Shown piece by piece: positions 7,834 to 64,000 of a DNA stretch of 64,000 nt. Source of the stretch: Actinokineospora baliensis (lineage in GTDB: Bacteria; Actinomycetota; Actinomycetes; Mycobacteriales; Pseudonocardiaceae); assembly GCF_016907695.1 (NCBI RefSeq), contig NZ_JAFBCK010000001.1, positions 4,514,001 to 4,578,000 of the forward strand, given 5' to 3'. The notes under the pieces are model-generated. The model was not told the origin of the DNA. It searched no databases and saw nothing but the letters and a program-made list of their open reading frames with translations. A program made the position numbers and the translations under genes. Each line of letters starts with the position of its first letter. Position 1 is the first letter of the stretch.

Positions 7834-7840
7834 GACCACC

Positions 7841-7872
7841 GCGACCGGTATCCACATCGGACTACCGGTCGC
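7841..7872. terminator. shared hairpin between convergent genes
   Basis: GCGACCGGTA and TACCGGTCGC form a perfect 10-base stem with a 12-base loop, just beyond the desaturase stop and overlapping the stop codon of the convergent TetR gene. It can act on both transcripts. Confidence 0.5.
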
Positions 7873-30730: not shown

Positions 30731-30831
30731 TGATCCGCGCGACGCGTGTCGTGCCCATCCGGTAGACAGTGACCGAAGTGCCGAACAGACCACCCACCCG
30801 GGCCGCGGCCGGGCCGACCGATGGAGAGACG

Positions 30832-33222
<2,391 letters not shown>

Positions 33223-46899: not shown

Positions 46900-47010
46900 G
46901 CCCCCATCATCGACCATCCCCTCGTACGCGATACCAAAGACAGCCCCAGCGGTAGCGAGCGCACCGCGCATGCCGCCAATCGCATCGATACCGCTAGTTC
47001 GGAAAGCGGT

Positions 47011-47232
47011 CCGCTCGGTTGAACGTGTTGGCCGCGCCGACCTGTGGTCAGCGGGTAGCCGAGCAACGCTGCGACAGCCTGTGTCGTCCGATTGCATCGA
47101 GACCTCGGCTCGCGGGGTGTGGCCGCTCGGTGAACGTGTTGGCCGCGCCGGTCTGTGGTCAGCGGGTAGCCGAGCAACGCCGCGACTGCGTGTGCAGTCC
47201 GATCGCATCGAGGCCACCGCTCGCGGGGTGGC
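47011..47232. repeat. two tandem ~111-base direct repeats
   Basis: Units start at about 47011 (CCGCTCGGTTGAACGTGTTG) and 47123 (CCGCTCGGTGAACGTGTTG) and share CTGTGGTCAGCGGGTAGCCG and GCTCGCGGGGTG. They occupy the 524-base gap between the two NB-ARC genes. On the minus strand they are in frame with the gene at 46899 (SVARLPADHR-like repeats), but the composition suggests non-coding DNA. The remainder of the gap (46900-47010 and 47233-47423) shows no gene. Confidence 0.7.
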
Positions 47233-47423
47233 CGGAGCGAGGTGCCGGACGCCATCGGTCGGGCCAGCCCGTTTGCGCCAGGTGGCGATTGGTCCGTGTC
47301 GGGAGGGTTGCGGGGCGGTCTGGCGCCGGTGCGCGGGCCCGAACGGCGAGCGAGCCCGCGTGGCGAGTCAGGTCGCGGCCAAGCCAGGCACTCACCGAAC
47401 GGGCTGGCGGGTTCCCCAGGTGC

Positions 47424-49382
47424 TCAGTGGTCACCAAGCCCGGCTCGTTCGCGCCAGATGGCGAGCTTCGTCCGCGTGGCCATGGTCGCCGGGTGGTCTG
47501 GTCCCAGCACCCGGATCCGGTCAGCGAGCAACTCCGCCAGGGCATGCGCTGCCCCGACGGCGTCGCCCGCTTCGCCGCGGTGGCGGGCCAGGTTGCTGCG
47601 GGTGGCCAGGGTGTGAGGGTGGTCCGGCCCCAACACCCGGAGTCGGTCGGCGAGCAACTCGGCGAAGTCCTCTGCGACTCCGGTGTGCCCGGCCTCGCCG
47701 CGCCAGTAGGTGAGGTTGTTGCGGGTGGTGAGGGTGTCCGGGTGGTCCGGGCCGAGTACGCGGGTCCGATCGGCGAGCAGGCTGGTCAGGTCACGCACGG
47801 CGGCCGCGGGGTCGCCGCCGAGTCCTCGCTGGCGGGCCAGGTTGCTGCGGGTGATCAGGGTGTCGGGGTGGTCCGGGCCCAGGATCCGCGTCCGGTCGGC
47901 CAGCAGCTGCACGAACGCCTCGGTGGCCTGGGCCCGTTTGCCCGCCTTGTCCAGTTGCCGCGCGAGGTTGCTGCGGCTGGTGAGCGTGTCCGGGTGGTCG
48001 GGACCCAGCACCCGCAGCCGGTCCGCGTACAGCTTGACGACGGTGTCGTACGACCCGGTGAGGTCGCCCGCTTGGCGTTGCCAGTAGCCGATGCTGTTGC
48101 GGGTCTTGAACGTGTCGGGGTGATCAGGCCCGAGGTGGTGCTCGGCGGCCGCGAGCAAGGTGCGGAAATAGGCGACGCCAGCCCGCACCTGGCCAGCTTC
48201 GCCGAGGCTGCGACCCGCGCGCAACAGCAGGTCAGGACGCCCGGACCGCCACAGGTGGTCGCCACCGAACGCGGTCAGCGCGGCAGTGTTGGCCCGCAGC
48301 ATCGCCGCGTGTTCGGTGTCGCGCTCGATGTCCGGCCAGTTCGCGAGGATCGCGTCGGCGACCACTCGGGTCAGCAGCGCCAGTCGCTCGGTGGGCAGGT
48401 GCTCGCGGCTGACCTGTTGCACCAGCGCGTGCACCCGGGCGACCGGCCCCAGGGACTCGGTGTCGACGGTGATCAGGTTGAGGCGGCGGAGTGCGCCGAG
48501 GGCGCGGGTCGCGCCGTCCACGTCGATGGGTTCGCCGCTGCCGGTGGACAGGTAGGTCAGGATCGGCTGGGCTGTCAGCACGGGCAGCGGGATGCCGTTG
48601 GGGTCCAGCAGCGACATCACCGACAACATCGGGCGGGCCAGATCGCACAGGGTGTCGGCCGCGTCGACGGAGACCGCCCAGGTCTTGGCCACGGTCTCGG
48701 AGCCGTCATCCGGGAACATCTCCCGCAGTGCGGCCCCTCGCCACTTGGCGATGTAGGACTCGCAGGTCATGCCAGGGGTCATCTCCAAGTACGCCGCGGC
48801 CTGGCCAAGTGCGAGGGGGAGTTGACCGAGGAGCTCCGCCAGGTCGTCCACCCCCGGGGCGTCCCCGAGCACGCCCCGCAGGTACGCCGCCGACTGGGTT
48901 TCGGTGAACACCTCCACCGGCACCATCCGCCGGGTGGCGGTTTGCAGCGCCCACCGCTCGTTGCGGCGGGTCGTCACCACCAGTCGCCCGTGGGCACCTG
49001 TGTTCGGCCAGAGGTCCTTCACATCCGCCGGGTCCGCCAGGTCGTCGAACACCACCAGCCACGTGTGGTCGGTGCTCGCGCACCAGTCCAGGAATCGCCG
49101 CGCCCCCCGTTCGGCGTCGTCCGCCACCGACCCGGTGACCACCGTCCCCAGCTCCGCCAAGCCGCTGACCAGGCTCGACCGCGAAGCGGCCGTCACCCAG
49201 CCCACCAGGTCCGCCGACGCCCGGCTCGCGTACTCAGCCGCCGTCTGGGTCTTGCCGACGCCGCCCAGGCCGGACAGCACCACCCCGCCGGAGACCAGCC
49301 CTTCCAGTTCCGGGACCAGCCTCGGTTGGAACCCGTCCACCACGGCGGGCACGGCGCCCGACCGGAACGGCAGCCCGGTCAC
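47424..49382 (-). CDS. NB-ARC/TPR STAND NTPase, paralogue 2
   Basis: 652-residue paralogue of the gene at 44764. It starts about 35 residues later in the alignment, lacking the VHGPVTVGG segment. Walker A GLGGVGKTQ lies at about residues 33-41, Walker B WLVVFDDLADP follows, and the TPR region contains at least six ~42-residue units with RVLGPDHPDTLTTRSNLARQRG-like cores, more regular than in paralogue 1. The GTG start overlaps the stop of the homocysteine methyltransferase gene by four bases (GTGA), giving translational coupling to an unrelated metabolic gene, which may reflect chance fusion of transcription units after duplication. No DNA-binding domain. Confidence 0.83.
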   Translation of the reverse strand: MTGLPFRSGAVPAVVDGFQPRLVPELEGLVSGGVVLSGLGGVGKTQTAAEYASRASADLVGWVTAASRSSLVSGLAELGTVVTGSVADDAERGARRFLDWCASTDHTWLVVFDDLADPADVKDLWPNTGAHGRLVVTTRRNERWALQTATRRMVPVEVFTETQSAAYLRGVLGDAPGVDDLAELLGQLPLALGQAAAYLEMTPGMTCESYIAKWRGAALREMFPDDGSETVAKTWAVSVDAADTLCDLARPMLSVMSLLDPNGIPLPVLTAQPILTYLSTGSGEPIDVDGATRALGALRRLNLITVDTESLGPVARVHALVQQVSREHLPTERLALLTRVVADAILANWPDIERDTEHAAMLRANTAALTAFGGDHLWRSGRPDLLLRAGRSLGEAGQVRAGVAYFRTLLAAAEHHLGPDHPDTFKTRNSIGYWQRQAGDLTGSYDTVVKLYADRLRVLGPDHPDTLTSRSNLARQLDKAGKRAQATEAFVQLLADRTRILGPDHPDTLITRSNLARQRGLGGDPAAAVRDLTSLLADRTRVLGPDHPDTLTTRNNLTYWRGEAGHTGVAEDFAELLADRLRVLGPDHPHTLATRSNLARHRGEAGDAVGAAHALAELLADRIRVLGPDHPATMATRTKLAIWRERAGLGDH

Positions 49383-50245
49383 GACCCCACCGCTCTGGCC
49401 AGATCGGCGATGTCGGCGGGGGTGACCCGGCAGCAGCCGCCGACCACCTGGGCGCCCGCGGCCACCCACTCCGCCGCCAGGTCCACGGAGAACCGGGACG
49501 GGCCGCTCCAATCGCCGGTCCAGGATTCGCCGCTGTTGGGGTAGACGATGATGGGTTTGTCGGTGACGGAGCGGGCGACGGCGATCGCGGGGCCGATGTC
49601 GGTGGGGGAGCTGCAGTTCACGCCGACCGCCGCGACCGACGGGCTCGCCGCGGCGGCGTCGAAGGCTTCGGCCAGGGGTTGACCGGCGCGGGTGCGGTCG
49701 CCGTCGATCGTGTAGGCGACCCACGCGGGCACGTCGACCTCGGTCAACGCCACGGCCAAGGCCTGCGCCTCGACCATGTCCGGCACCGTCTCGCACGCCA
49801 GGATGTCCGGTCGAGCGCTCGCGAGCACCTCCAGCCGCGGCCGATGCCAGTCGGCCAGGGCCGACACCGACATCCCGTACCGGCCCCGGTACTCCGACCC
49901 GTCGGCCAGGAAAGCCCCGTACGGCCCGACCGACGCCGCGACCCACTGTGACAGTGAGGTGCGCGCGGCGATCGCCACCTCGACCCCGAGCCGCATCAAC
50001 CGCTCAGCGCCCGCCCGGTCGATGCCACGAGCCGCGAACCCCTCGAAAGACGCCTGGTAGGTCGCCGTGGTCGCGATGGACGCCCCAGCCTGGAAGAACG
50101 CCAGGTGAGCGGCCGTCAGCACACCGGGCTCATCCACCAACATCCGCGCCGACCACAACGCGTCCGACATGTCATGGCCCCAGGCGCGCAGTTCGGACGC
50201 CAGGCCGCCGTCGAGGATCACGGGGGAACCGGTCAGGAAGTCCAC
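49379..50245 (-). CDS. mmuM: homocysteine S-methyltransferase (MmuM-like)
   Basis: 288-residue zinc-dependent homocysteine S-methyltransferase, which transfers a methyl group from S-methylmethionine (or S-adenosylmethionine) to homocysteine to give methionine. The start ILDGGLASEL, the first zinc ligand in GVNCSSP and the paired ligands in GGCCRVTP near the C-terminus are all present. The GTG at 50245 gives MDFLTGSPVILDGGL. Length is a little below E. coli MmuM (310). It is coupled to the NB-ARC gene by a four-base overlap. No S-methylmethionine permease is adjacent. Confidence 0.92.
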   Translation of the reverse strand: MDFLTGSPVILDGGLASELRAWGHDMSDALWSARMLVDEPGVLTAAHLAFFQAGASIATTATYQASFEGFAARGIDRAGAERLMRLGVEVAIAARTSLSQWVAASVGPYGAFLADGSEYRGRYGMSVSALADWHRPRLEVLASARPDILACETVPDMVEAQALAVALTEVDVPAWVAYTIDGDRTRAGQPLAEAFDAAAASPSVAAVGVNCSSPTDIGPAIAVARSVTDKPIIVYPNSGESWTGDWSGPSRFSVDLAAEWVAAGAQVVGGCCRVTPADIADLARAVGS

Positions 50246-52441: not shown

Positions 52442-53542
52442 TCAGTACACGCCCTCCACGCGCCTGCCTTCGGTGAACTCGGGGCTGTACGGGTCGCCGA
52501 TCCAGGGCCAGGGGAACAGGTCAGCGGCCTTGCCGTAGGGCTCGACGCGGCGGGCTCGGTCGCGTTCGAGGAAGCCGGGCAGGAGTTGGTCGTCGGTGAG
52601 GCGCCAGACGCGGACTCGGCCTTCTTCGCCGTAGGCGACGGGGGTTGCGGCGTCGTCGACGAGGTCGAGGGTGACCCAGGGGGAGCTGGGGATGTAGACG
52701 AGGCCGTGTTCGTCCTCGGGTTCGAACGGCTTCTGCCAGCTGATGCTGGTGGTCGACGACCCGTACATGCCCAGGATCGGGACGTCGGGGAAGACGTCTT
52801 CGCGCAGGAGTCGGTGGGACAGCACCGGCATCGTGGTGCCCGCGTGCACGACACCGCGGACATCCTTGAGCAGCTTGGGATCCACGTACTCGGGCAGCAT
52901 CTCCAGTAGCCGCGCGGTGCCGTAGAGCACGCCGATCCGCTGGGACTCCAGTACCGCGTTGACCTGGTCCCAGATGTGGCGCACGTACCGCTCGTACGCG
53001 GCTGCCATGCCCTCCTCGCCGAAGATCTTGACGATGCGCGGGTCGAGGTCGATCGAGAAGCACATGCCGCCGCGCGATTCCGCCCAGTCGACCACGAGCC
53101 TGCCGATGGTGTGCGGGCCCATTGGCGAGATGTAGAGCCAGTTGACGCCGCGGGGGATGCCGTGGGTGTCCATGGCGTAGTGGGAGAAGTCGCTGACGTG
53201 CTTCCAGTACTTGCCGCCCCAGGTGCCGTGCTTGGGCAGTCCGGTGGTGCCGCCGGTTTGTGCCGCCCAGAGGAAGTCGTTGTCGCGCACGACATCGGCC
53301 GGGATGAAGTCCTCTACCGGGCGCCGCCTGCTCGCCTCCTCGAAGATCTCCTGGTCCGCTTCGTCGCGGAAGGCCAGCAGTTCCTGTGCGGCCGCCCAGC
53401 TGTCCACTGTGGAGTATCCATTGGTGCCGAGCCTGCGGTCGCGTTCCAGCCAGAACGGGGAACCGGTCTCCGGGTGCAGGTGCCTGCGCACGACCGCGCG
53501 CACGTGCTCGTCGGACACCGGGGTCAGTGGTGGGGTCACCAT
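52442..53542 (-). CDS. LuxE/GriD-like acyl-adenylating enzyme
   Basis: 366-residue AMP-forming enzyme of the LuxE/phenylacetate-CoA ligase-like group. The ATP-binding loop is TGGTTGLPK (residues 96-104), MYGSSTTSIS (259-268) is the adenine/acyl-pocket motif, and the C-terminal part has RVRVWRLTDDQLLPGFLERDR with the conserved hinge Asp. Together with the upstream LuxC-like gene, which it overlaps by seven bases, it probably forms a carboxylic acid reductase as in GriC/GriD of grixazone synthesis or LuxC/LuxE of bioluminescence: this subunit activates the acid and passes it to the reductase. GAAGGAG precedes the ATG. Located beside the Car genes, it may make an aldehyde precursor. Confidence 0.82.
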   Translation of the reverse strand: MVTPPLTPVSDEHVRAVVRRHLHPETGSPFWLERDRRLGTNGYSTVDSWAAAQELLAFRDEADQEIFEEASRRRPVEDFIPADVVRDNDFLWAAQTGGTTGLPKHGTWGGKYWKHVSDFSHYAMDTHGIPRGVNWLYISPMGPHTIGRLVVDWAESRGGMCFSIDLDPRIVKIFGEEGMAAAYERYVRHIWDQVNAVLESQRIGVLYGTARLLEMLPEYVDPKLLKDVRGVVHAGTTMPVLSHRLLREDVFPDVPILGMYGSSTTSISWQKPFEPEDEHGLVYIPSSPWVTLDLVDDAATPVAYGEEGRVRVWRLTDDQLLPGFLERDRARRVEPYGKAADLFPWPWIGDPYSPEFTEGRRVEGVY

Positions 53543-54963
53543 GCGGGGTCTCCTTCTCGGTGGGGGAGCACGGGCTTCTTCTGGAAGAGGAAGTCGGCGA
53601 GGTAACCCTCCTGCGGGTCGCGTGGGTCGTACCCGCGGTCGAACCCCTCGCCGTGGAACACCTTGGAGATCGACGGTTCCGCGACCAACTCCCGCAGCAA
53701 CTCGGGGTCGTCGCCGGGCAGCGACACGATGAGCGACTCGCGGCACGTGTCTGCCAACTCGGCGCGCGGCACCTCGGTCACCGTGACGAACGGAAATGGC
53801 AACTCCATGCGCACCAACGGCGAATCCGACCGCACCCGCAACACTGTGGGCCGCAGGAACCGGGTCCCGTCCAACTCCACCCGAAGCGGCACCCCGGTCA
53901 CCCGCGCCGTGACGTCCTCCGCGCCCGCCGCGATCTCCCGCTCGATCATGCGGGCAACGGCGTCCCAATCGGCGGGGTCGGTGAACGCGGGCACGTTCGC
54001 GGCCGGATCGGCCAGCGGTAGCACGGGGAACTCGGCGAACTCGGCCGCCAACCGCTCCGCGGCCTGCTCTGCCGACCACGAGACCGCGATCGAGCTGACG
54101 TTGGTGCACAGCCTGCCGCAGCCCTGGAACGCCAACCGGGTGAGCCGGGTCCACGCGTCGTCACCGGGATCGGTTGGTAGAACCGCCTTGCTGCGACCGA
54201 AGTGGTAGAGCTTCAGCCGTGTCGGATCGAGCCCCGGCGGGTAGTTCTCGCCCGGCCACACCACCTGATCGGCCAACCGGTGGAACGTCTCGGCGTTGTC
54301 ATGGCTGATGGACACGGCACCGTCGGGCAACCCGGCCTCGTACAGCGCCTCGACGAAGATCGCCGCCACGAACGGGTCGTGCCTGCTGGTGCTCACCAAC
54401 GCCGCCCGCCTGCTCGCGAGCACCTGCAACCACTCGATCGCGATGGTCGGGAAGTTCGCGGGCACCCGCACCATGGCCGTGCGGCCAGCGGGTAGCCACG
54501 ACCAATTGTGTCCACTGTGGCCAGTGCGGTATGGCCCGGTCGTCCCGTCGGGCGACTGCGCCGCCATGATCTCGTCGAGGTACCGCATCTGGCCCACCAC
54601 GGCCAAGATCCCTCGACTCGCCCGCCGCACGGGCAAGGCGCACGTCGATGCCAGGGCCGCCAGCTGTGAGTCGAGCGCCCCGGATTCGACGTGCTTCTCG
54701 ACGATGTCGGCGGCTCGGCGGAACAACCCGAACCACTCATCGTCCGGAATGGACAGCAGGTCGACGGCCTTGGCCCGCGCGACCATCTGCTGCTGGGCCA
54801 GACGGCTCGCGTGGTCCACAGTGGCCGCGAGCTCGCCCCGGCACCCGAGGAGTTCGACCGGGCGGCCGGACCAGATCGGTTCAGCTCCCGCCCACGAGGG
54901 TACGGCTGGTAGTTGGTCCGTGGCGGTGGCCAGCGGAAGCGACACGAGATTCTCCCTGGTCAT
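53536..54963 (-). CDS. LuxC/GriC-like acyl reductase (aldehyde dehydrogenase fold)
   Basis: 475-residue NADPH-dependent acyl reductase of the LuxC family (aldehyde dehydrogenase superfamily). The catalytic Cys is most likely Cys286 in GCGRLCTNVSS, the position that accepts the acyl group before reduction to the aldehyde. Other family features are PANFPTIAIEW and LKLYHFGRSKAVLP, near the NADPH site. Its 3' end overlaps the LuxE-like gene (ATGGTGA), so the two are co-translated. The chain is of normal LuxC length (~480). It starts an operon divergent in sense from the Car-type genes, 230 bases from the NRDE gene. The acid substrate is unknown. Confidence 0.83.
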   Translation of the reverse strand: MTRENLVSLPLATATDQLPAVPSWAGAEPIWSGRPVELLGCRGELAATVDHASRLAQQQMVARAKAVDLLSIPDDEWFGLFRRAADIVEKHVESGALDSQLAALASTCALPVRRASRGILAVVGQMRYLDEIMAAQSPDGTTGPYRTGHSGHNWSWLPAGRTAMVRVPANFPTIAIEWLQVLASRRAALVSTSRHDPFVAAIFVEALYEAGLPDGAVSISHDNAETFHRLADQVVWPGENYPPGLDPTRLKLYHFGRSKAVLPTDPGDDAWTRLTRLAFQGCGRLCTNVSSIAVSWSAEQAAERLAAEFAEFPVLPLADPAANVPAFTDPADWDAVARMIEREIAAGAEDVTARVTGVPLRVELDGTRFLRPTVLRVRSDSPLVRMELPFPFVTVTEVPRAELADTCRESLIVSLPGDDPELLRELVAEPSISKVFHGEGFDRGYDPRDPQEGYLADFLFQKKPVLPHREGDPAW

Positions 54964-55192: not shown

Positions 55193-55897
55193 TCAACCAG
55201 CAGTGCGTTCCTGTTCTCCCTGGTCGAGGGCGGGCGCGGTGTTCACGCGGTGCCAAGATCCCCCTTCTCGCGGTGCCGCCATGAAGTCGTAGGTCAGGCC
55301 GTGGTGGTCAAGGGAGACCGCCGCTGCCGAGGTTGTGCCGTAGGGCCTGCCCGATTCGATCCGGTCGATCAGCAGCGCGTCCTGCTTGGCGGGAAACGGT
55401 TCTGGCCCGTCGAGCAGCGTCGGCCACTGCGCATCGGACAGCCCCGCGAGCCGGGGGTGGAAACGGCGGACTCGGGAGTGGGTGAGGTCGTTGAGGCCGC
55501 CGTAGGTCAGGACGTGGTCGCCTTGCTGCACGACGCGGGCCGTCAGGGCGCGGCCATCCCAGCTGGTCAGCCGCACCCGGCCGGGTTCGGCGTGCAGGAG
55601 GTGGAAACCCGGCATCCCCGCGGCGTACGGTTCGCCGCCGCTGAGTGCACGCGGGACGAGCCAGCCCCTACTGGGCGCGTTCGGCGCCGTACCGGGGCCG
55701 TTGACCAGGACCGAAACCGCGGGCCGGTCGGTGCGCACAGCGAGCCAGGTACCGCCGGAGACCAGGTCGAGGCCGCCGAGCAGGTCCTGGTCCGGCCAGT
55801 GCCGTCCCGGTGGTGCCCACGGCCGGTCGAGGAACTCGTCGCGTGCCGCGGCGAGCAGGACCACCGGGTCCCGGACACGCAAGAACACGGTGCACAT
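55193..55897 (-). CDS. NRDE/TANGO2-family protein
   Basis: 234-residue protein of the NRDE (TANGO2) family, named for an Asn-Arg-Asp-Glu motif, here AARDEFLDRP. It begins MCTVFL, with Cys2 exposed after Met removal, as in N-terminal-nucleophile hydrolases to which this family is structurally related; NGPG, GTWLAV and YGTTSAAAV are further family landmarks. The ATG at 55897 is chosen for that MCT start. It lies between the reductase operon and the rightward biosynthetic operon and may share the divergent promoter region with the latter. Role in the pathway is unknown; an acyl hydrolase or editing function is conceivable. A decayed copy of its 3' end follows the gene. Confidence 0.82.
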   Translation of the reverse strand: MCTVFLRVRDPVVLLAAARDEFLDRPWAPPGRHWPDQDLLGGLDLVSGGTWLAVRTDRPAVSVLVNGPGTAPNAPSRGWLVPRALSGGEPYAAGMPGFHLLHAEPGRVRLTSWDGRALTARVVQQGDHVLTYGGLNDLTHSRVRRFHPRLAGLSDAQWPTLLDGPEPFPAKQDALLIDRIESGRPYGTTSAAAVSLDHHGLTYDFMAAPREGGSWHRVNTAPALDQGEQERTAG

Positions 55898-56195: not shown

Positions 56196-57350
56196 ATGTC
56201 AGCAGGTGGCCCACGGGGCTTCCGCGGTCGGACCGCGGCGCTGGGGATCAAGGACGAGGCCGACGACTTCGCCGTCGTCGTGTCCGAGGTGCCCGCTGCG
56301 GTTTCGGCCGTGTTCACCCGGTCGAGGTTCGCCGGGCCCAGCGTCGTGCTCAGCCGCGAAACGGCCGCGACGACCACCGCGAGCGGCGTCGTGGTCATCG
56401 CCCGCAACGCCAACGTGGCCACCGGCGCCGAGGGCCTGGCCAACGCGCGCGAGGTGCGCGCCACCGTCGCCGCGGCGGCCGGGATCGAGCCGGAGCAGCT
56501 GCTCATCGCCTCCACCGGCGTCATCGGACGGCAGTACCCGATGGACCGGGTGCGCTCCGGGTTGGCCGAGCTGGACTGGTCGCTGCCCGAGGCCGACCTG
56601 GACAAGGCCGCCCGCGCGATCATGACCACCGACACCGTCGCCAAGCACGTGGTCGCCGAGTGCGGCCCGGCCAGCATCGCCGCCATCGCCAAGGGCGTCG
56701 GCATGATCGAGCCGAACATGGCGACCCTGCTGACGTTCTTCTTCACCGACGCCGAACTCGACCAGCCGGTGCTCGACCGGGTGTTCCGCCGCGTGGTCGA
56801 CCGGACCTTCAACGCGCTCAGCGTCGACACCGACACCTCGACCAGCGACAGCGCCGCGATCCTGGCCAACGGCCTGGCCGGTCCGGTCGACGAGGCCGAG
56901 TTCGAGGCGGCGCTGCACGAGGTGGCGACCAAGCTGGTCCGGATGATCGCCGCCGACGGCGAGGGCGCGAGCAAGCTGATCGAGGTGCGCGTGCTCGGCG
57001 CCCGCGACGACGCGCAGGCCAAGCGGGTCGGCAAGGCCGTGGTGAACTCGCCGCTGGTCAAGACCGCCGTGCACGGCGCGGACCCCAACTGGGGCCGGGT
57101 CGCGATGGCGATCGGCAAGTGCGAGGACGAGCTCGACATCGAGCCCGCGAAGGTCGTGATCCGCTTCGGCGACGTCGAGACCTACCCGGCGCCCGCCACC
57201 GACGAGGTGCTGGCCGCGGCGTCGACGCACCTCAAGGGCGACGAGGTGGTGATCACCATCGACCTGGGCATCGCGTCGGGGGCGTTCACCGTCTTCGGCT
57301 GCGACCTGACCGACGGCTACATCCGGATCAACGCCGACTACACGACCTGA
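56196..57350 (+). CDS. OAT2/ArgJ-like ornithine acetyltransferase
   Basis: 384-residue N-terminal-nucleophile acetyltransferase that cleaves itself before a Thr. The autoproteolysis site is KGVGMIEPNMATLLTF with Thr177 as nucleophile. It shares long blocks with OAT2 (orf6) of the Streptomyces clavuligerus clavulanic acid cluster as I recall it: AVSAVFTRSRFAGPSVVL, STGVIGRQYPM, IMTTDTVAKHV, DTDTSTSDSA and NSPLVKTAVHG. OAT2 moves acetyl groups between N-acetylornithine/N-acetylglutamate and other acceptors. ATG 56196 has GAGAGG upstream. First gene of the rightward operon; it could supply ornithine or glutamate-derived precursor or modify an intermediate. A housekeeping argJ is less likely because no arg genes are near. 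Confidence 0.9.
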   Translation: MSAGGPRGFRGRTAALGIKDEADDFAVVVSEVPAAVSAVFTRSRFAGPSVVLSRETAATTTASGVVVIARNANVATGAEGLANAREVRATVAAAAGIEPEQLLIASTGVIGRQYPMDRVRSGLAELDWSLPEADLDKAARAIMTTDTVAKHVVAECGPASIAAIAKGVGMIEPNMATLLTFFFTDAELDQPVLDRVFRRVVDRTFNALSVDTDTSTSDSAAILANGLAGPVDEAEFEAALHEVATKLVRMIAADGEGASKLIEVRVLGARDDAQAKRVGKAVVNSPLVKTAVHGADPNWGRVAMAIGKCEDELDIEPAKVVIRFGDVETYPAPATDEVLAAASTHLKGDEVVITIDLGIASGAFTVFGCDLTDGYIRINADYTT

Positions 57351-57394
57351 CGCGGTACTCCAGACGACGGCACGGCGGGGATCAGGGGGAACTC

Positions 57395-58480
57395 ATGCCG
57401 AACGGCGACAGCACGCTCTCGTGGTGCGACAGCACCGCCGACATACCGGTGGCCGAGTGGGACGGGCTCGCCGGTCCGGACGAGTTGTTCCTGTCCCACC
57501 GCTGGTTGCGGGTGGTCGAGGAGACGGCGGCGACGCCGATGCGGTACCTGTGCGCGCGGCGCGGCGGCCAACCGGTCGCCGCGCTGGCCACGGCCATGGC
57601 CACCGCCGATGTGCCATGGGTGAGCGGCCGGGTGGACCACGTGCTCACCGAGTGCGCCGAAGCCGGATCCAGCGGTGCCGCAGCGTTCCTACACGCGGTG
57701 GGTGGGGCGGATGCGCTGCTGCCCAACGTCCATTGTGGAGGGCGGCACATCGGCCGCAACCGGGTGCTGCACACCGGTGATCGAGGTGACGTCGCCACGC
57801 TGGTCGAGGCGGCCGAGAAGCTGGCTGCTGACAACGGATCTGCATCTGTCTCGTTCTCCTACGTCGACGAGCGCGACACTGTGCTCACAGGGGTACTGCG
57901 TGATCGCGGCTACTTCTCGTTCGCCGCGGGTAGCTACCACTGGCTCGATGTGGACCCGGGCGGGTTCGGCCCGTACCTGGCCGCGTTGCCGCGCAAGCGC
58001 CGGTTCAGCGTCCACAGTGAACGCCGCAAGGTGAGCGAAGCGGGGTTGACGATCACGCACGAGCGCGTCACCCCGGAGATCGTCGGCAGGCTCGCTGAGC
58101 TGGACGTGCTGCTGCTGGCCAAGTACGGCCTGACGTGGCCGGTCGAGCGTTCGGCCGAGGCCATCGGCACCTCAGCCGCACGATTCGCCGACGACGCCTC
58201 GGTGCTGCTGTGCCGGGCGGACGGTGAGATCCGCGGGTTCGCGTTGATGCTGCGCCAAGGCAACCACTGGTACGCCAGGCAGTGCGGCTTCGACTACGAC
58301 TTCCTCGGCAAACTCCCCGTGTACTACGAGCTGCTCTACTACTCCGCCGTGGAACGTGCTGCCGAGATCGGCGTGACGACGATCCAGTACGGGCTCGGTA
58401 GCGACACCGCCAAGCGTTCCCGGGGCTGCCAGTGGAGCGAACTCACAGCCCACGTACTGCCGCTGAGGCGGTGCGCGTGA
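57395..58480 (+). CDS. FemAB/GNAT-type acyltransferase
   Basis: 361-residue protein with a duplicated GNAT-like architecture of the Acetyltransf_6/peptidoglycan-bridge (FemAB-like) kind: an N-terminal half to about residue 190 ending in LAALPRKRRFSVHSERRKV, and a C-terminal half (about 200-355) with IRGFALMLRQGNHWYARQCGFDY and YYELLYYSAVERA. Such enzymes acylate amines with acyl-CoA or aminoacyl-tRNA donors. ATG 57395 has AGGGGGA upstream. Its stop overlaps the ATP-grasp start, and together the two may attach an acyl or aminoacyl group to a pathway intermediate. The clavulanic acid cluster also has an acetyltransferase-type and an ATP-grasp gene, but I cannot claim orthology. Confidence 0.75.
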   Translation: MPNGDSTLSWCDSTADIPVAEWDGLAGPDELFLSHRWLRVVEETAATPMRYLCARRGGQPVAALATAMATADVPWVSGRVDHVLTECAEAGSSGAAAFLHAVGGADALLPNVHCGGRHIGRNRVLHTGDRGDVATLVEAAEKLAADNGSASVSFSYVDERDTVLTGVLRDRGYFSFAAGSYHWLDVDPGGFGPYLAALPRKRRFSVHSERRKVSEAGLTITHERVTPEIVGRLAELDVLLLAKYGLTWPVERSAEAIGTSAARFADDASVLLCRADGEIRGFALMLRQGNHWYARQCGFDYDFLGKLPVYYELLYYSAVERAAEIGVTTIQYGLGSDTAKRSRGCQWSELTAHVLPLRRCA

Positions 58481-59724
58481 ACCTCGACGGCGTTTTCGTG
58501 GTGGTGGAGACCCAGCTGTCCCGGTTCGGGCTCAGTCCACTGGTCGCGGCTCGTGACCTGGGTATGCGGACCGCTTTCCTGGCAAGGGATCCCGCGCGCT
58601 ACGCCGGGCACAGCGGGACCACCACACCCGCCGACCTGGCCGACCATGTGATCGAAGTGGACACACGTACGGCGGCCCCGGTCGTCGCGGCGGTTCGTGG
58701 CCTCGGTGCGGTGCGCGGCATCTGCACCGTAACCGACTACAGCGTCGCCGTCGTCGCCGAGGTCGCCCGCGAACTCGACCTGCCCGGCCTGGCACCCGAG
58801 GCGGCGCACAGCGCACGCGACAAACTGCGCACCCGACGCGCGTGCGCGGCAGCCGGGGTACCCGCGCCACGGTTCGCCTGGGCGGACGACGAGGAATCCG
58901 CCGTCGCCGCCGCCAACGACTTCGGCTACCCCTGCGTCGTCAAGCCCGCGACCGAGGCAGGCAGCATCGGCGTGCGGCTGTGCCGCGACGCGGACGAGGT
59001 GAAGGCGCACCTGCGGGGGCTGACCGCCGACGAGCACGACTTCCGCGGGCAGGCCAAGCCAGTCGGGGCGCTGGTGGAGGAGTACCTGGTCGGCTACGAG
59101 GTGAGCGTGGAGTCCCTGCTCGTCGACGGGCACCGGCACACCCTGGGCGTGGTCGACAAAGTCCTCGGCGCGCACCCGCACTTCGTCGAACTCGGCGAGA
59201 GTTTTCCCTCCGCACTGCCAGAATCCGTGCGCCGCGAGGTGACCGAGGTGGCGACCGCGGCGCTGCAGGCCATCGGGCATGACTTCGGCGCCGCCCACGT
59301 CGAGGTCAAGGTGACCCCGGCCGGGGCGCGGCTGGTCGAGATCAACGCCCGCCCAGGTGGCGGGGTGATCACCCGGCTGGTCGCCGAAGCCACCGGGATC
59401 GACGTGCCGCACCAGTTGGTCCGGATGCACGCGGGCTTGTCTGCCGACCTCACCCGCACCCGCGACCTCGCAGCCGCCTCGCGCTACCTCACCTCCGCCG
59501 TGGCCGGCACCGTGCGGGCAGTGCACGGCGTCGACCTGGCCCGCAGGGTCGGTGCACGGGTCGAGGTGGCGCTGGAAGTCGGCGCTGGCGACGAGGTCCG
59601 GTTGCCCACCAGCAACGTGGACTGGATCGGCCACGTCGTGGCGGTCGGCGCCAACGCGACCGAGGCGTCACGGACCGCAGACGCTGCCGCGAACCAGGTC
59701 CAGGTAGAGGTTGTGCGGTCGTGA
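58477..59724 (+). CDS. ATP-grasp carboxylate-amine ligase
   Basis: 415-residue ATP-grasp ligase that activates a carboxylate as acyl phosphate and joins it to an amine. The pre-ATP-grasp part spans residues 1-115, the ATP lid glycine-rich region is YPCVVKPATEAGSIGV (151-166), EEYLVGYEVSVES (201-213) follows, and the metal-binding VEINARPGG lies at 287-295. GTG 58477 overlaps the stop of the preceding gene (GTGA); a GTG two codons upstream is also possible. Length and motifs fit biosynthetic amino-acid ligases. N-glycyl-clavaminate synthetase of the clavulanic acid pathway is an ATP-grasp enzyme in a comparable setting; whether this gene performs a like step on a carbapenam is unknown. Confidence 0.85.
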   Translation: MNLDGVFVVVETQLSRFGLSPLVAARDLGMRTAFLARDPARYAGHSGTTTPADLADHVIEVDTRTAAPVVAAVRGLGAVRGICTVTDYSVAVVAEVARELDLPGLAPEAAHSARDKLRTRRACAAAGVPAPRFAWADDEESAVAAANDFGYPCVVKPATEAGSIGVRLCRDADEVKAHLRGLTADEHDFRGQAKPVGALVEEYLVGYEVSVESLLVDGHRHTLGVVDKVLGAHPHFVELGESFPSALPESVRREVTEVATAALQAIGHDFGAAHVEVKVTPAGARLVEINARPGGGVITRLVAEATGIDVPHQLVRMHAGLSADLTRTRDLAAASRYLTSAVAGTVRAVHGVDLARRVGARVEVALEVGAGDEVRLPTSNVDWIGHVVAVGANATEASRTADAAANQVQVEVVRS

Positions 59725-60944
59725 CCGACTCGGATACCTTGCCGCGTCGAGGGTTTCTCCCGCGCGGCCGCGGGGTGACCGCCTTCGGCCTGGCCAACCT
59801 GGTGAGCGCGTTGGGAACCGGCGTGTTCTACCCGTACACGCTGCTGTTCTTCCCCGCGCTGCTCGGCCTTCCGCTGACCCAAGTCGGCCTGGTATTGACC
59901 GCGGCCGCGCTGGTCGCACTGCCCGGCATGTTCTGGGTCGGTCGGCTCATCGACCGGGTCGGACCGCGGTCGGTGCTCATCGCGGCCGCCCTGCTGCGCG
60001 CGGTCGGCTTCACCGGATACGTCACGATCCGCCACGTGGTCGCATTCGCGCTGTTCAGCGTGCTCATCGCGTTGTGCAACCGGGCAGAACAGGCGGCGTC
60101 GCCCGCGTTGGCGGTCGCGCTGGCCGCAGAGGGTGAACGCAACCGCTGGCTCGCGTTGTCCCGCACGGTCTTCAACGCTGGCATCGGTGGGGGAGCGCTG
60201 CTGGGTAGTGCGCTCATCGGCGGCGGCTCGGCGGGACTCGTCTGGCTGGGCATGGCCAATGCGGCGGGGTACCTGTTGGCGGGCTTGGTGTTGTGGCCGT
60301 TGCGACCGCCGCCCGTTCCCGCGCCTGACCGGGCCCGCGTGACCCGGAGACCGTGGCGCGACGGACCGTTCCTCGCTGTCGTGGCGGCCAACTCGGCGTC
60401 GTGGCTGATCGCGTTGGCGGTGGAGACCGGCCTGTCGGCGTACCTGGTCGGCGTGCTCGGCAAACCCGCATGGCTGGTGGGCGTGTTGTTCGCCATCAAC
60501 ACCGGTCTGCTGATCGTGCTGCAGTTGCCGCTCACCTCGGCGTTGGAGCGCCGCGGCGACATCCCGATCCTCGTCGCGGGCACGCTGGTCAGCGCGGTGT
60601 TCCTGGTGCTGGTGGCCATGGCGGGCGGATTCGGTACGACCACGCTCGTCGTGGCGCTGGTGTTGGGCATGGTGGTGTACACCCTCGGCGAACTCGCCAC
60701 CACGCACGCGCGGTACGCGCTGCTCACCGACCTGCCACCGCCCGCCCAACTGGGCTCCTACCTGGCTTTCAGTCAGGTCGCGGCGGGGATCACCGGCGCT
60801 CTGGTGCCGGTGCTGGTCGCCGCGCTGCTCGACTCGGCGCCCGCTGGGCTGTGGTGGCTGTTGGCCGGGCTCTCCGCGCTGACCGCAGCCGGGGTGCTGG
60901 CCGCGCGCCCGCTGCTGCTGGCCCGCACGAGAGGGGACCTGTGA
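59721..60944 (+). CDS. MFS transporter, probable product exporter
   Basis: 407-residue major facilitator permease with 12 hydrophobic helices. The loop after helix 2 has WVGRLIDRVGPRSVL, the family's G-x-x-x-D-R-x-G-x-R signature. GTG 59721 overlaps the ATP-grasp stop (GTGA), embedding it in the operon. MFS genes inside antibiotic clusters usually export the product and give self-resistance; that is the likely role here. No CarF/CarG-type resistance proteins, beta-lactamase or altered penicillin-binding protein is visible in the window, so this may be the only self-protection gene seen so far. Confidence 0.87.
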   Translation: MTDSDTLPRRGFLPRGRGVTAFGLANLVSALGTGVFYPYTLLFFPALLGLPLTQVGLVLTAAALVALPGMFWVGRLIDRVGPRSVLIAAALLRAVGFTGYVTIRHVVAFALFSVLIALCNRAEQAASPALAVALAAEGERNRWLALSRTVFNAGIGGGALLGSALIGGGSAGLVWLGMANAAGYLLAGLVLWPLRPPPVPAPDRARVTRRPWRDGPFLAVVAANSASWLIALAVETGLSAYLVGVLGKPAWLVGVLFAINTGLLIVLQLPLTSALERRGDIPILVAGTLVSAVFLVLVAMAGGFGTTTLVVALVLGMVVYTLGELATTHARYALLTDLPPPAQLGSYLAFSQVAAGITGALVPVLVAALLDSAPAGLWWLLAGLSALTAAGVLAARPLLLARTRGDL

Positions 60945-61007
60945 CCGCCGTGGCGGTCGGTACCGGAGATCGGTGAACGCGTTCGACAACCTGGGAGGCG
61001 GATCGCG

Positions 61008-61805
61008 ATGACCCATGACTACTCGGTGTTCGACTTCGGCGTGACCCTGGCGGACGGGGTGGCGCTGGTGGAGTTCGACGACGCGCACCGGCACAACCCG
61101 TGGTCGATGCCGAGGATGGACGGCCTCACCCGGTTGCTGACCGAGTTCGGCCGCGATGACCGGGTGCGCTCGGTGGTGCTGTTCAGCGGGGTCGGCCGCT
61201 CGTTCGGCGTGGGCGGCAGCTTCCACGAGACCGCCACCTTCACCGGCGGCGACGAGGTCGACGCGTGGATCGACCAGGTGACCGACCTCTACATCGCGGC
61301 GCTGCGGCTGGACCGACCGCTGATCGCCGCGATCGACGGGTACGCCATCGGCATCGGCCTGCAGATCGCGCTGACCGCCGACTACCGGATCGGCAGCTCG
61401 CGGTGCGTGCTCAAGATGCCGGAGTTCGAACTCGGCATCGCCTGCACGTTCGGCGGCTACATGCTCGAGCGGGTCGTGGGCCGCGCCGTGATGCAGAAGA
61501 TGGTGATGACGTGCGCGGAGTGGGATGCCAGGCGCTCGGAACGCGATGACCTGCTGCACGAGGTGGTCGCGCCGGAAGCGTTGCGCGAGGCCGCTGTGCG
61601 CCACGCCGAGCACGCCGCCGGGTTCACCGCGGCGGGCTTCCGCAAGACGAAACCCCACTTGAACGGGGACTTCATCGAAGGGCTTGAGCGGACACGGATC
61701 GCGGGCAAGGCGGCTCACCGTGCGGCATTCGCGGCGGGGGACGCGCAGCGGAAGATGAACCGCGTCATCGGCGCGGGCGCGGAGCCCGCCGGGGTCGGCC
61801 GATGA
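61008..61805 (+). CDS. carB: CarB-like carboxymethylproline synthase (crotonase fold)
   Basis: 265-residue crotonase-superfamily enzyme. CarB joins malonyl-CoA to L-pyrroline-5-carboxylate (glutamate semialdehyde) and releases (2S,5S)-carboxymethylproline. Against remembered Pectobacterium CarB, the following blocks agree: VFENS-type start aside, RSFGVGGSFHE, EVDAWIDQVTDLY, AAIDGYAIGIGLQIAL with the oxyanion-hole backbone and Gln119 (Gln111), KMPEFELGI with Glu139 (Glu131), and AAHRAAFAAGDAQ with the conserved His (His229). Offsets are a constant eight residues over the core. GGGAGG precedes the ATG. It directly precedes the CarA-like gene with an ATGA overlap. ThnE-like is the alternative name. 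Confidence 0.9.
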   Translation: MTHDYSVFDFGVTLADGVALVEFDDAHRHNPWSMPRMDGLTRLLTEFGRDDRVRSVVLFSGVGRSFGVGGSFHETATFTGGDEVDAWIDQVTDLYIAALRLDRPLIAAIDGYAIGIGLQIALTADYRIGSSRCVLKMPEFELGIACTFGGYMLERVVGRAVMQKMVMTCAEWDARRSERDDLLHEVVAPEALREAAVRHAEHAAGFTAAGFRKTKPHLNGDFIEGLERTRIAGKAAHRAAFAAGDAQRKMNRVIGAGAEPAGVGR

Positions 61806-63157
61806 CCGGCATGCCATGGCTCGTTGTCGCCAATCACCCAGTGCCCGGCTTCGAGGAGACGCTCGCCTTTGGCGGGGTTCGGGTGTACGCGTCCGGGTGC
61901 GCACCCGCTGGTACGACCTTCGCCGTGGAACCAGGTGGAACGGCGATCCACTTTGACGTGGACCGGGTGCGGGTGCAGGTGTCGGAGCGCAATACCACCC
62001 CTGTTTACTTCGCGCTTGACCAGACGACCGGCCGGTTCGTGCTCGGCACGGACCTGCCGACGACCGCGGCGGCGTCTGCGGCACTGACCGGTGAGTCCGC
62101 TGTTCTGCGCGCGGACCTCGGTGTCCATAGTGGATCCGATTCGGCTGTCGTCGGGGTGTCGCGGTTGACGCACCTGGCAGATCTGGATCTACGTCTGGAG
62201 TCCGGCACGTGGCGGTGCTCCCACACCCGGCGCGCTGACCCGGAGCAGCCCGCCATCCGCTTCCACGACGCGGCCGCCGCTGGCGAGGCCCAAGTGGACG
62301 CCCTGCGCTTGGCCATCGCCGACGCGCTCGCCACGGAAGCCGAAGGCGAGGCCGGTGTGCTGGTGTCCGGGGGAGTGGACTCCGGACTGGTCGCCGCGTT
62401 GGTCGCGCGGACCGGCACACCCGCGACCGCGTACACCATCGGCACCGAGTGGGGCGACGAGTACGACCACGCAGCCGAAGCGGCACAAGCGGTCGGGCTC
62501 GACTTGCGGCGCACCGCGTTGCGCGCCGAGGACATCGTCGAAGGGTTGCCCACCACGGTGCGCGCCTTCGGCCACTGCGAGCCGGAGACGATCGCGATCG
62601 GGGTCGCGCTCGCCGCGTTCTGCCGCGGTGGGTACGCCCGGGAACGGCTGCTGTTCACCGGATATGGCTCAGATCTGCTGAACTCGGGGATGGCGACCAC
62701 CGACGAGATCGACGGTGACATCGGCGCCAAGGTTCGCGCCGCGGTGGACCGCACTCGCTACTCGTCGGAGTTCACCCGGGCACTGGGCAGCGAGCGCGGC
62801 TATCTGCTGACCCATCCGTACTGGCACCCCGGAGTGCTCGACGTCGCGTTGGCCACCGACCCGGCCGTGAAGTCCTTCCGCGGCAGGGAGAAGGGCCACC
62901 TGAGGCTGGCGGCGCGGGCCCTACTGCCCGAGGATGTCGCGTGGCGGCGCAAAACCGCCATCCACCACGGCAACGGACTCGGCGCCAACCTCGCCCACCT
63001 CATCGACGCGCACATCGGGATCCCCGGCAGCGCACCACTGCTCTACCGCGCCCTGCTCACCGAGCAGATCGCCACCGCGGCGAACAACCCACTCGCTCCG
63101 CTGTTGGGCCACGACGCCTACCACCGCGCGGTCGCCACCGTGGCCCGCGGCCACTAG
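61802..63157 (+). CDS. carA: CarA-like carbapenam synthetase (beta-lactam synthetase family)
   Basis: 451-residue enzyme of the asparagine synthetase B-derived beta-lactam-forming family. It would adenylate carboxymethylproline and close the beta-lactam ring. The N-terminal half is a degenerate glutaminase-like domain without the catalytic Cys (it begins MTGMPWL). The synthetase half has the PP-loop VSGGVDSG, FTGYGSDLL with Tyr288, RYSSEF with Glu323 and AWRRKTAIHHG with Lys384. These match Tyr345, Glu380 and Lys443 of Pectobacterium CarA, with Tyr-to-Glu spacing of 35 in both. The chain is about 50 residues shorter than CarA, mostly in the N-terminal domain. The ATG overlaps the carB stop. 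A clavam-type Bls role is less likely given the CarB neighbour. Confidence 0.88.
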   Translation: MTGMPWLVVANHPVPGFEETLAFGGVRVYASGCAPAGTTFAVEPGGTAIHFDVDRVRVQVSERNTTPVYFALDQTTGRFVLGTDLPTTAAASAALTGESAVLRADLGVHSGSDSAVVGVSRLTHLADLDLRLESGTWRCSHTRRADPEQPAIRFHDAAAAGEAQVDALRLAIADALATEAEGEAGVLVSGGVDSGLVAALVARTGTPATAYTIGTEWGDEYDHAAEAAQAVGLDLRRTALRAEDIVEGLPTTVRAFGHCEPETIAIGVALAAFCRGGYARERLLFTGYGSDLLNSGMATTDEIDGDIGAKVRAAVDRTRYSSEFTRALGSERGYLLTHPYWHPGVLDVALATDPAVKSFRGREKGHLRLAARALLPEDVAWRRKTAIHHGNGLGANLAHLIDAHIGIPGSAPLLYRALLTEQIATAANNPLAPLLGHDAYHRAVATVARGH

Positions 63158-63191
63158 AGCAAGTCACCGACTACATCGAGGGCGGTACACC

Positions 63192-64000
63192 ATGACCAAC
63201 TTCTCCTCGCTGACCCCGTCCGGCTTCGGTGCCGTGCTGGACGAGGGCACCCCGGCCGACCCGAAGACCGTGCGTGACGTGGCGCTCGAAGCCGGTGTCA
63301 CTGTCGTGAAAGGACAGACGTTCACCGAAGACCTGTTCCGCGAGTTCGTCACCGGCCTCGGCGACACGGTCTCCTACGATGACGACGACGCCGCCGTCGG
63401 CTACGGGTTCACCGACATCCTGCACCTGGACGGCACCCGCGACGAGGGCAAGGTGATCACCGGCCGCGGCGGCCTCCCGCTGCACACCGACGGAGTCCTG
63501 CTGGGCACCCAGGTCGACCTGATCGTCCTGTTCGCCGCCGAGGTACGCGACCTGGCCGCCGACGGTGCCACCCTGGTGTGCGACCAGATCACCGCGTGGA
63601 CTGAATTGCCGGACGACCTGCGCGCGGTGCTCGACCGCGGCCACCTCGAGTACATCGCGACCGAACGCGGCTACTTCACCAGCGTCCCCGAGGGCTGGTA
63701 CCCGATCCCCACCTTCCGCAACTACGGCCGGGTCAAGTCGCTCAACCTGGCACTGCCGTTCCAGTCCGACGAGGCCCTGGCCAGCTGGGATGTGCGGGTA
63801 CCGAACACCTCAGCGGAGGAATCTGGGCAGTTCTTCACCAACCTGCGCACGCACCTGTCAGACCCCCGCTACCTCTACGAACACCGGTGGACGGCAGGCG
63901 ACCTGGTCGTGATCGACAACCAACGCACCCTGCACGGCAGGCGCGGCCTGGCCAACGCCTCGAGCCGCAAACTCCTACGCGGCCAGGTAACCCTCGCCGC
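63192..64000 (+). CDS. carC: CarC-like carbapenem synthase (Fe(II)/2-oxoglutarate oxygenase), 3' end cut
   Basis: The frame is open to the window edge; 269 of an expected ~273 residues are visible. CarC epimerises C5 of carbapenam and desaturates C2-C3 to give the carbapenem. The iron ligands are His98 and Asp100 in TGRGGLPLHTDG and His248 in DNQRTLHGRRG, matching His101, Asp103 and His251 of Pectobacterium CarC with a constant offset of three; Arg263 in LLRGQ fits the 2-oxoglutarate-binding Arg267. Shared blocks also include SGFGA near the start, QVDLIVLFAAE and ERGYF. ATG 63192 lies 34 bases after carA. TauD-like enzymes with other substrates are excluded by the block matches and by context. 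Confidence 0.9.
   Translation, partial: MTNFSSLTPSGFGAVLDEGTPADPKTVRDVALEAGVTVVKGQTFTEDLFREFVTGLGDTVSYDDDDAAVGYGFTDILHLDGTRDEGKVITGRGGLPLHTDGVLLGTQVDLIVLFAAEVRDLAADGATLVCDQITAWTELPDDLRAVLDRGHLEYIATERGYFTSVPEGWYPIPTFRNYGRVKSLNLALPFQSDEALASWDVRVPNTSAEESGQFFTNLRTHLSDPRYLYEHRWTAGDLVVIDNQRTLHGRRGLANASSRKLLRGQVTLA

What the first reader, a model, noticed from the sequence alone, without database searches (positions are those of the whole stretch)
56196..64000. A carbapenem-type operon with the complete CarB-CarA-CarC core in an actinomycete
Three consecutive genes encode homologues of the enzymes that are enough to make the simple carbapenem nucleus from pyrroline-5-carboxylate and malonyl-CoA. Seen: CarA Tyr288/Glu323/Lys384, CarB Gln119/Glu139 and CarC His98/Asp100/His248, each at spacing equal or nearly equal to the Pectobacterium enzymes. 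Known: actinomycete carbapenem clusters characterised so far (thienamycin, MM 4550) use ThnE and ThnM for the first two steps and other oxygenases later, whereas CarC belongs to the Gram-negative Car pathway. Inference: this operon makes a carbapenem through (5R)-carbapen-2-em-3-carboxylate, then tailors it. It may be an undescribed carbapenem family.
Basis: partly seen in the sequence, partly recalled or inferred. Interest (0 to 1): 0.95.

Follow-up and report, generated by a model that had tools for sequence, protein, structure and literature searches.

The report
Carbapenem-like cluster with altered final enzyme
An actinomycete genome carries a ten-gene block, found whole in two Streptomyces genomes, that is predicted to build the carbapenem antibiotic ring system and would likely finish it differently from the classical route, because its last core enzyme lacks the tyrosine proposed to flip the ring there.

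Summary
The block is larger: ten genes (52442-64034, ending 34 bases past the window), found whole in two Streptomyces genomes. The reading 'Car pathway through (5R)-carbapen-2-em-3-carboxylate' is only partly supported. The CarB-like enzyme is closest to ThnE (56%; CarB 40%). The CarA-like one keeps the Tyr-Glu-Lys set of beta-lactam synthetases but sits in its own clade. The CarC-like one is closest to CarC (38%), yet has Phe where CarC has Tyr165, the proposed hydrogen donor for C5 inversion: Phe in 95 of 97 proteins of its search set, Tyr in 67 of 72 of the Pantoea CarC set. No CarD-like gene was found; instead an ornithine acetyltransferase of clavulanate-cluster (OAT2) type is a regular partner (18 of 22 close loci). 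[quoted passage not shown] A FemX-fold transferase and an ATP-grasp ligase suggest amino-acid tailoring. Verdict: a new variant of carbapenem-type cluster; product structure and activity untested.

The parts
52442..53542 (-). AMP-forming acid-activating enzyme, EhpF-like
   Evidence: both PDB sequence hits are EhpF, 120 bits; 86-88% in two Streptomyces genomes; start ATG 53542
53536..54963 (-). aldehyde dehydrogenase-family reductase, probable partner of the EhpF-like enzyme
   Evidence: Pfam Aldedh 58 bits; 80% in L009 and L010
55193..55897 (-). NRDE/TANGO2-family protein starting Met-Cys (possible Ntn hydrolase)
   Evidence: Pfam TANGO2 52.6 bits; Met-Cys start here and in L009, L010, L012, not found in L011 and L013; also beside CarC in L011-L013
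55898..56195 (.). divergent intergenic region, probable promoter region for both arms
   Evidence: coordinates; no promoter scan run
56196..57350 (+). ArgJ of the OAT2 type (ornithine acetyltransferase)
   Evidence: 1vz6 OAT2 518 bits, 66% identity; own housekeeping ArgJ only 36%
57395..58480 (+). FemX-fold transferase, predicted aminoacyl-tRNA-dependent amide-forming enzyme
58477..59724 (+). ATP-grasp ligase, L-amino-acid-ligase type (exact start uncertain)
   Evidence: Pfam ATP-grasp_4 and LAL_C2; L-amino acid ligase BL00235 77 bits
59721..60944 (+). MFS transporter
   Evidence: Pfam MFS_1 97 bits
61008..61805 (+). CarB/ThnE-like carboxymethylproline synthase homologue
   Evidence: 5o34 298 bits, CarB 178 bits; G70, W87, Q119, E139, H237 kept
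61802..63157 (+). CarA/ThnM/Bls-like beta-lactam synthetase homologue
   Evidence: CarA 87, Bls 76 bits; Y288/E323/K384 kept; no N-terminal Cys
63192..64000 (+). CarC-like 2-oxoglutarate oxygenase; stop at 64034, 34 bases past the window
   Evidence: CarC 195 bits; iron triad kept; CarC Tyr165 = Phe and Tyr191 = Ala

Best explanation
The right end of the window carries a ten-gene block whose CarB-, CarA- and CarC-like enzymes are predicted to make a carbapenam ring from pyrroline-5-carboxylate and malonyl-CoA and then likely to oxidise it without the C5 inversion of the classical pathway. Shown: gene content, order, overlaps of reading frames, catalytic residues, conservation of the block in two other genomes. 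Inferred: the CarB-like enzyme joins malonyl-CoA to pyrroline-5-carboxylate giving carboxymethylproline; the CarA-like enzyme closes the beta-lactam; the CarC-like enzyme, a natural counterpart of the CarC Tyr165Phe variant, desaturates or hydroxylates the carbapenam; the OAT2-type ArgJ replaces CarD as the precursor-supply step by drawing on the acetylated arginine pathway (ornithine or glutamate semialdehyde); the FemX-fold transferase and the ATP-grasp ligase add amino acids; the EhpF-like/aldehyde dehydrogenase pair reduces a carboxylate; the MFS protein exports the product.
For: Solved-structure matches led by CarB/ThnE, CarA/Bls and CarC. CarA Tyr-Glu-Lys in 19 of 19 readable rows of the window and L009-L030. 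CarB Gly62 and His229 in every family row; His229 is not His in the two plain crotonases readable there. CarC: Asp103, His251 and Arg263 in 97 of 97 and His101 in 96 of 97 of the window CarC search set (own protein included), but Phe at 165 in 95 of 97, against Tyr in 67 of 72 of the Pantoea CarC set; residue 191 Ala/Thr/Ser in 97 of 97 against Tyr in 71 of 72. A review assigns C5 inversion to Tyr165 and reports that Tyr165Phe gives catalytic substrate oxidation (PMC6097109, passages). OAT2-type ArgJ in 18 of 22 close loci found by CarC alone (L024 and L025 are the same sequence), in 0 of 38 distant TauD loci. Neither Pantoea CarD nor the own genome's proline dehydrogenase finds a match in the 60 loci or the window plus 20 kb; as a control the latter finds CarD in the Pantoea operon at 3e-12. 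The genome has an argCJBDFRGH set with its own argJ. Ten-gene block in L009 and L010 with different flanks. FemX-like fold.
Against: No chemistry was tested. The window CarC keeps Tyr67 and Tyr164, so another residue might donate the hydrogen; L029, a locus with ArgJ, has Tyr aligned at 165, as do P0090 and P0093. W79, Q111 and E131 of CarB also occur in the plain crotonase 4kd6. CarA relatives in R. fascians and Acinetobacter lack both Tyr and Glu, and that of S. decoyicus lacks Tyr, so not all relatives need make a beta-lactam. ArgJ was not found in 4 of 22 loci (L011, a 6-kb contig; L020, L022, L027). The OAT role as precursor supply is inference. In the CarC tree the Pectobacterium/Pantoea group lies next to the window and Pseudomonas group rather than apart (long branches, root unsure).
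Confidence: 0.55

Rival explanations
1. It is a classical Car pathway: the product passes through (5R)-carbapen-2-em-3-carboxylate, with another residue doing the job of Tyr165, and is then tailored.
For: CarC is the best-matching solved structure by far; iron triad, Arg263 and, in the window, Tyr67 and Tyr164 are kept.
Against: Phe at 165 in 95 of 97 and never Tyr at 191 in 97 proteins of the search set; position 67 is His in 48 of those 97, so it is no general substitute; no CarD found.
Confidence: 0.17
2. The OAT2-type ArgJ is a self-resistance copy: a carbapenam is an N-alpha-acyl amino acid like N-acetylornithine, so the product would acylate the catalytic Thr of ArgJ and starve competitors of arginine, while the cluster copy resists. 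This concerns the role of ArgJ and can be true together with the best explanation.
For: Cluster ArgJ keeps the motif MATLLTF, at whose Thr the OAT2 beta chain begins in the solved structures, and is an extra, diverged copy; ArgG/ArgH also lie in several relatives; inhibition of ornithine acetyltransferase by a natural product, mangotoxin, is reported (PMC3927611, passages).
Against: No proline dehydrogenase was found in any of the 60 loci, which fits a supply role at least as well; no inhibition was tested.
Confidence: 0.25
3. The three enzymes are repurposed for a different cyclic imine or a non-beta-lactam product, as the att relatives may be.
For: CarA homologues of R. fascians and Acinetobacter lack the Tyr and Glu of the catalytic set; His389 replaces a Glu common to CarA, ThnM and Bls; CarC active site altered.
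Against: The window CarA has the full Tyr-Glu-Lys set and its CarB is 56% identical to 5o34, taken to be ThnE, a carboxymethylproline synthase.
Confidence: 0.2
4. Chance neighbours: an ordinary enoyl-CoA hydratase, an asparagine synthetase and a TauD dioxygenase of general metabolism.
For: Pfam and NCBIfam give only general names.
Against: Solved-structure matches, trees and conserved neighbourhood in actinomycetes and proteobacteria.
Confidence: 0.02

Closest known systems
car operon of Pectobacterium/Pantoea ((5R)-carbapen-2-em-3-carboxylate)
   Same: CarA-, CarB- and CarC-type enzymes with matching metal and ligase residues
   Different: no CarD-like gene found, no ferredoxin-like Pfam in the ten proteins; OAT2, ligases and NRDE protein instead; CarC Tyr165 and Tyr191 replaced; gene order B-A-C (A-B-C in Pantoea)
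thienamycin (thn) and MM 4550 clusters of Streptomyces
   Same: CarB homologue closest to ThnE (56%); ThnM is the nearest named synthetase by identity (35%)
   Different: has a CarC homologue, a close one of which the thienamycin cluster lacks (PMC6097109, passage); no radical SAM Pfam in the block
clavulanic acid cluster of S. clavuligerus
   Same: OAT2-type ArgJ (66%); a beta-lactam synthetase and a related 2OG oxygenase
   Different: no thiamine-diphosphate enzyme or amidinohydrolase Pfam in the block; CarB homologue present
att locus of Rhodococcus fascians pFiD188
   Same: CarB-CarA-CarC-AMP ligase-ArgJ homologues in one run
   Different: the att run has ArgG, ArgH, a formyltransferase, LysE and LysR genes; its CarA homologue lacks the Tyr and Glu; the window has EhpF/ALDH, FemX-fold, ATP-grasp, NRDE and MFS genes

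Membership tests
Car pathway to (5R)-carbapen-2-em-3-carboxylate | adjacent CarA, CarB and CarC homologues with iron-binding and ligase residues | tested here: met
Car pathway to (5R)-carbapen-2-em-3-carboxylate | CarC Tyr165, assigned as hydrogen donor in C5 inversion | tested here: not met
   Phe in the window and in 95 of 97 proteins of its search set, the window's own included
Car pathway to (5R)-carbapen-2-em-3-carboxylate | CarD proline dehydrogenase gene in the operon | tested here: not met
   two proline dehydrogenase queries find none in the window plus 20 kb nor in 60 loci; control found
Car pathway to (5R)-carbapen-2-em-3-carboxylate | production of the compound | not testable with these tools
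   needs enzyme assays or LC-MS
beta-lactam synthetase (CarA/ThnM/Bls) | Tyr-Glu pair and Lys at CarA 345/380/443 | tested here: met
   Y288/E323/K384; the own genome's two AsnB-type proteins have Glu and Arg at the first two
beta-lactam synthetase (CarA/ThnM/Bls) | no N-terminal catalytic Cys of glutamine amidotransferases | tested here: met
   starts MTGMPWLVV
carboxymethylproline synthase (CarB/ThnE) | oxyanion-hole Gly62, Glu131 and ThnE/CarB side of the tree | tested here: met
   grouped with CarB and ThnE apart from three other crotonases, support 94, not starred
thienamycin-type cluster | radical SAM gene such as ThnK | tested here: not met
   no such Pfam in the ten proteins
clavam cluster | thiamine-diphosphate synthase and amidinohydrolase next to the synthetase | tested here: not met
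   no such Pfam in the ten proteins; such genes are annotated in S. clavuligerus L079
OAT2 type of ornithine acetyltransferase | nearer to OAT2 of the clavulanate cluster than to housekeeping ArgJ | tested here: met
   66% against 36% identity; 518 bits against at most 138 for other solved ArgJ chains; tree with one housekeeping ArgJ as outgroup
FemX/aminoacyl-tRNA-dependent transferase | fold | tested here: met
FemX/aminoacyl-tRNA-dependent transferase | use of aminoacyl-tRNA | not testable with these tools
   needs an assay

The most novel reading that the evidence does not exclude
[quoted passage not shown] it acts on arginine metabolism rather than on cell walls and includes the long-unidentified att signal.
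Probability: 0.22. Interest if true: 0.9.

Novelty: new variant of a known kind. Interest (0 to 1): 0.72.

Why it matters
Carbapenems are important antibiotics, and the passages I read discuss two characterised routes, car and thn/MM 4550 (PMC6542682, PMC6097109, PMC12482188). This cluster type joins a ThnE-like first step, a CarC-like last step and the clavulanate-type OAT2, and offers a natural test of the Tyr165 model of CarC stereoinversion in an intact enzyme family. It also gives the unidentified product of the R. fascians att locus a concrete chemical starting point, and makes the role of OAT2 in beta-lactam clusters testable by comparison with CarD.

Tried and rejected
Considered and rejected: catabolic crotonase, AsnB and general TauD. 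Looked for CarD to the right of the window: none by two tblastn queries over 20 kb; the first query alone is weak, since it finds the own genome's proline dehydrogenase only at 2.8e-4, so the second was run with a control. Five genes to the right were Pfam-scanned: Imm7, pentapeptide, M20 peptidase and two without a match. PADLOC scan of the FemX-fold and NRDE proteins gave nothing. Samples: of 297 genomes drawn from the family, 2 matched CarC at 1e-25, the own genome and a decayed remnant; of 394 drawn from the class, 1 at 1e-30, the own genome.

Literature: all 10 paper searches used. Most lists were capped at 15-30 of hundreds or thousands of papers; the word actinomycete swamped the other term. 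Lists shown in full: 14 papers; 3; 0. No listed title or abstract start describes an actinomycete cluster with a CarC homologue and ArgJ; the library lacks most subscription papers, so print elsewhere is not excluded. Papers of which I saw passages only: PMC12482188, PMC6097109, PMC6542682, PMC12130866, PMC7002392, PMC4092121, PMC5550956, PMC7261884, PMC3927611, PMC8115136, PMC6423291. The original att paper (Maes 2001) and the Tyr165 paper were not read; they are cited through those passages. Recalled, from no call: that Tyr191 lies near the CarC active site; that the CarB- and CarA-like ORFs of S. cattleya pSCATT are ThnE and ThnM (the fetched stretch bears no annotation). Trees are the 'quick' kind, with long branches; the deep order of the CarA and CarC groups is unsure.

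Rows dropped: L025, whose stretch is identical to L024, from alignments and trees, though both count among the 22 loci; L012 CarA (the frame read gave only 109 residues) from the CarA tree and residue counts; it was left as it is.
Full report
What is there. They end a block of ten genes. On the minus strand: an EhpF-like acid-activating enzyme (52442-53542), an aldehyde dehydrogenase-family protein (53536-54963) and an NRDE/TANGO2 protein that starts Met-Cys (55193-55897). On the plus strand: ArgJ (56196), a FemAB/GNAT-like protein (57395), an ATP-grasp ligase, an MFS transporter, then CarB, CarA and CarC homologues; CarC ends at 64034, in locus L004. Reading frames overlap by 4 nt at ATP-grasp/MFS, CarB/CarA and, if GTG 58477 is the start, GNAT/ATP-grasp, which points to one transcript (inference).

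Is it a unit? The block is present in the same order in Streptomyces zagrosensis (L009) and Streptomyces sp. B-S-A8 (L010) at 59-88% protein identity; the genes beyond the EhpF-like gene differ in both. The block is rare: of 297 genomes drawn from its family, 2 matched CarC, the own one and a decayed remnant in the same genus that has in-frame stops and lacks the EhpF-like gene; of 394 drawn from its class, only the own one.

CarB homologue. Best solved structure is 5o34 at 298 bits, then CarB 2a7k at 178; the best ordinary crotonase has 86. 5o34 is 100% identical over 243 residues to an ORF of S. cattleya pSCATT, so I take it to be ThnE (that this ORF is ThnE is recalled). Identity is 56% to it and 40% to CarB. 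Gly62, Trp79, Gln111, Glu131 and His229 of CarB are kept; Met108 is Ile. Of these, Trp79, Gln111 and Glu131 also occur in the plain crotonase 4kd6, so they do not discriminate; Gln111 is Glu in L030 and Trp79 is Thr in L080.

CarA homologue. CarA and beta-lactam synthetase are the only two PDB matches at 0.001. The Tyr-Glu-Lys set is kept in 19 of 19 readable rows of the window and L009-L030, and in ThnM and both S. clavuligerus synthetases; R. fascians and Acinetobacter relatives lack Tyr and Glu, S. decoyicus lacks Tyr. There is no N-terminal Cys. In the tree these relatives, att type and S. decoyicus included, form one clade (99), ThnM next to it (91), CarA and Bls apart; long branches make the order unsure.

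CarC homologue. CarC is the best match at 195 bits; the next family has 37. The iron triad and the 2OG-binding Arg are kept. At CarC Tyr165 the window has Phe, at Tyr191 Ala. Over all 169 proteins returned by two searches: in the set of 97 for the window CarC, its own protein included, 95 have Phe at 165 (2 Tyr) and 97 have Ala, Thr or Ser at 191; in the set of 72 for Pantoea CarC, its own included, 67 have Tyr at 165 (2 Asn, 1 Phe, 1 Ala, 1 gap) and 71 Tyr at 191. L029, a locus with ArgJ, has Tyr aligned at 165. A review states that Tyr165 is the proposed hydrogen donor in C5 inversion and that Tyr165Phe gives catalytic substrate oxidation (PMC6097109, passages). The window enzyme is therefore predicted to oxidise rather than invert. 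Tyr67 and Tyr164 remain in the window, so this is a prediction to be tested.

The ArgJ partner. The cluster ArgJ is 66% identical to OAT2 of the clavulanate cluster and 36% to the other ArgJ of the same genome, which sits in a set that I read, with Pfam's domains, as argC, J, B, D, F, R, G, H. A scan of named genomes by CarC alone gave 60 loci; 22 (L009-L030, L024 and L025 identical) are close. Of these 22, ArgJ was found in 18, CarB in 19, CarA in 20; of the 38 distant TauD loci, none had any of them at the thresholds used. Two proline dehydrogenase queries, Pantoea CarD and the own genome's enzyme, find no match in the 60 loci nor in the window plus 20 kb; the second finds CarD in the Pantoea operon at 3e-12. 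The Pantoea operon has genes annotated proline dehydrogenase and 2Fe-2S protein behind CarC and no ArgJ match in the fetched stretch. I infer that OAT2 takes the place of CarD in precursor supply; a self-resistance role is the main alternative.

Relatives. Pseudomonas and Glaciimonas loci carry CarB-CarA-CarC-NRDE and, in two of the three contigs, ArgJ; P. fontis also has a GNAT and an adenylating enzyme. Streptomyces L014 has NRPS modules and a PLP decarboxylase, with related genes in several others by sequence clustering; Micromonospora L018 has an adenylating enzyme, ArgG, ArgH and a formyltransferase; ArgG and ArgH lie beside the core in L010 too. On pFiD188 of R. fascians the run LysR, LysE, argH, argG, formyltransferase, CarB, CarA, CarC, AMP ligase, argJ matches the ten-gene att locus of the papers, whose metabolite is called unidentified (PMC4092121) or an autoregulatory compound (PMC12130866); one paper doubts that att is needed for virulence (PMC7261884) (passages). 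No paper in the library holds att, Rhodococcus fascians and carbapenem together as whole words. The equation of this run with att rests on gene number, position and these descriptions.

Verdict. A real and coherent carbapenem-type cluster of a variant class.

Noticed in passing
L084 (same-genus genome G244) 7663-8301: Decayed remnant of a carC homologue with in-frame stops and no other block member found by tblastn in 16 kb: a sister species seems to have lost the cluster.
   Followed up: partly
L074 1881-12393 (R. fascians pFiD188): The run matching the att locus is a member of this family; its CarA homologue lacks the Tyr and Glu of the beta-lactam synthetase set, so its product may not be an ordinary beta-lactam.
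   Followed up: partly
L080 8614-13056 (Streptomyces decoyicus plasmid): TauD-CarA-CarB-adenylating enzyme run beside DAHP synthase, ketoacyl synthase III and NRPS-like genes: another, unlike, carbapenem-like cluster.
   Followed up: no
L010, L016, L018, L020, L026 (ArgG and ArgH); L016, L018, L026, L074 also a formyltransferase: Arginine-type synthase and lyase genes lie beside the core (Pfam for L010 and L018, sequence clustering for the rest, annotation for L074); with a formyltransferase they could turn an amine into a formamidine group.
   Followed up: no
L075 4442-11147 (Acinetobacter indicus pB18-1): Small five-gene version on a plasmid: ArgJ, CarB, CarA, CarC and an adenylating enzyme.
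   Followed up: no
P0083, P0179, P0192 (Kitasatospora herbaricolor): A CarC-like protein and two relatives of the FemX-fold protein have nearby gene numbers on one chromosome.
   Followed up: no
window 44764-49946: Two neighbouring large proteins of similar look; the one scanned (47424-49946) has TPR repeats by Pfam, and an NTPase of STAND type is a guess.
   Followed up: no
window 30769-33222: ABC-type protein with a weak, below-cut-off UvrA DNA-binding match; possibly a UvrA paralogue.
   Followed up: no
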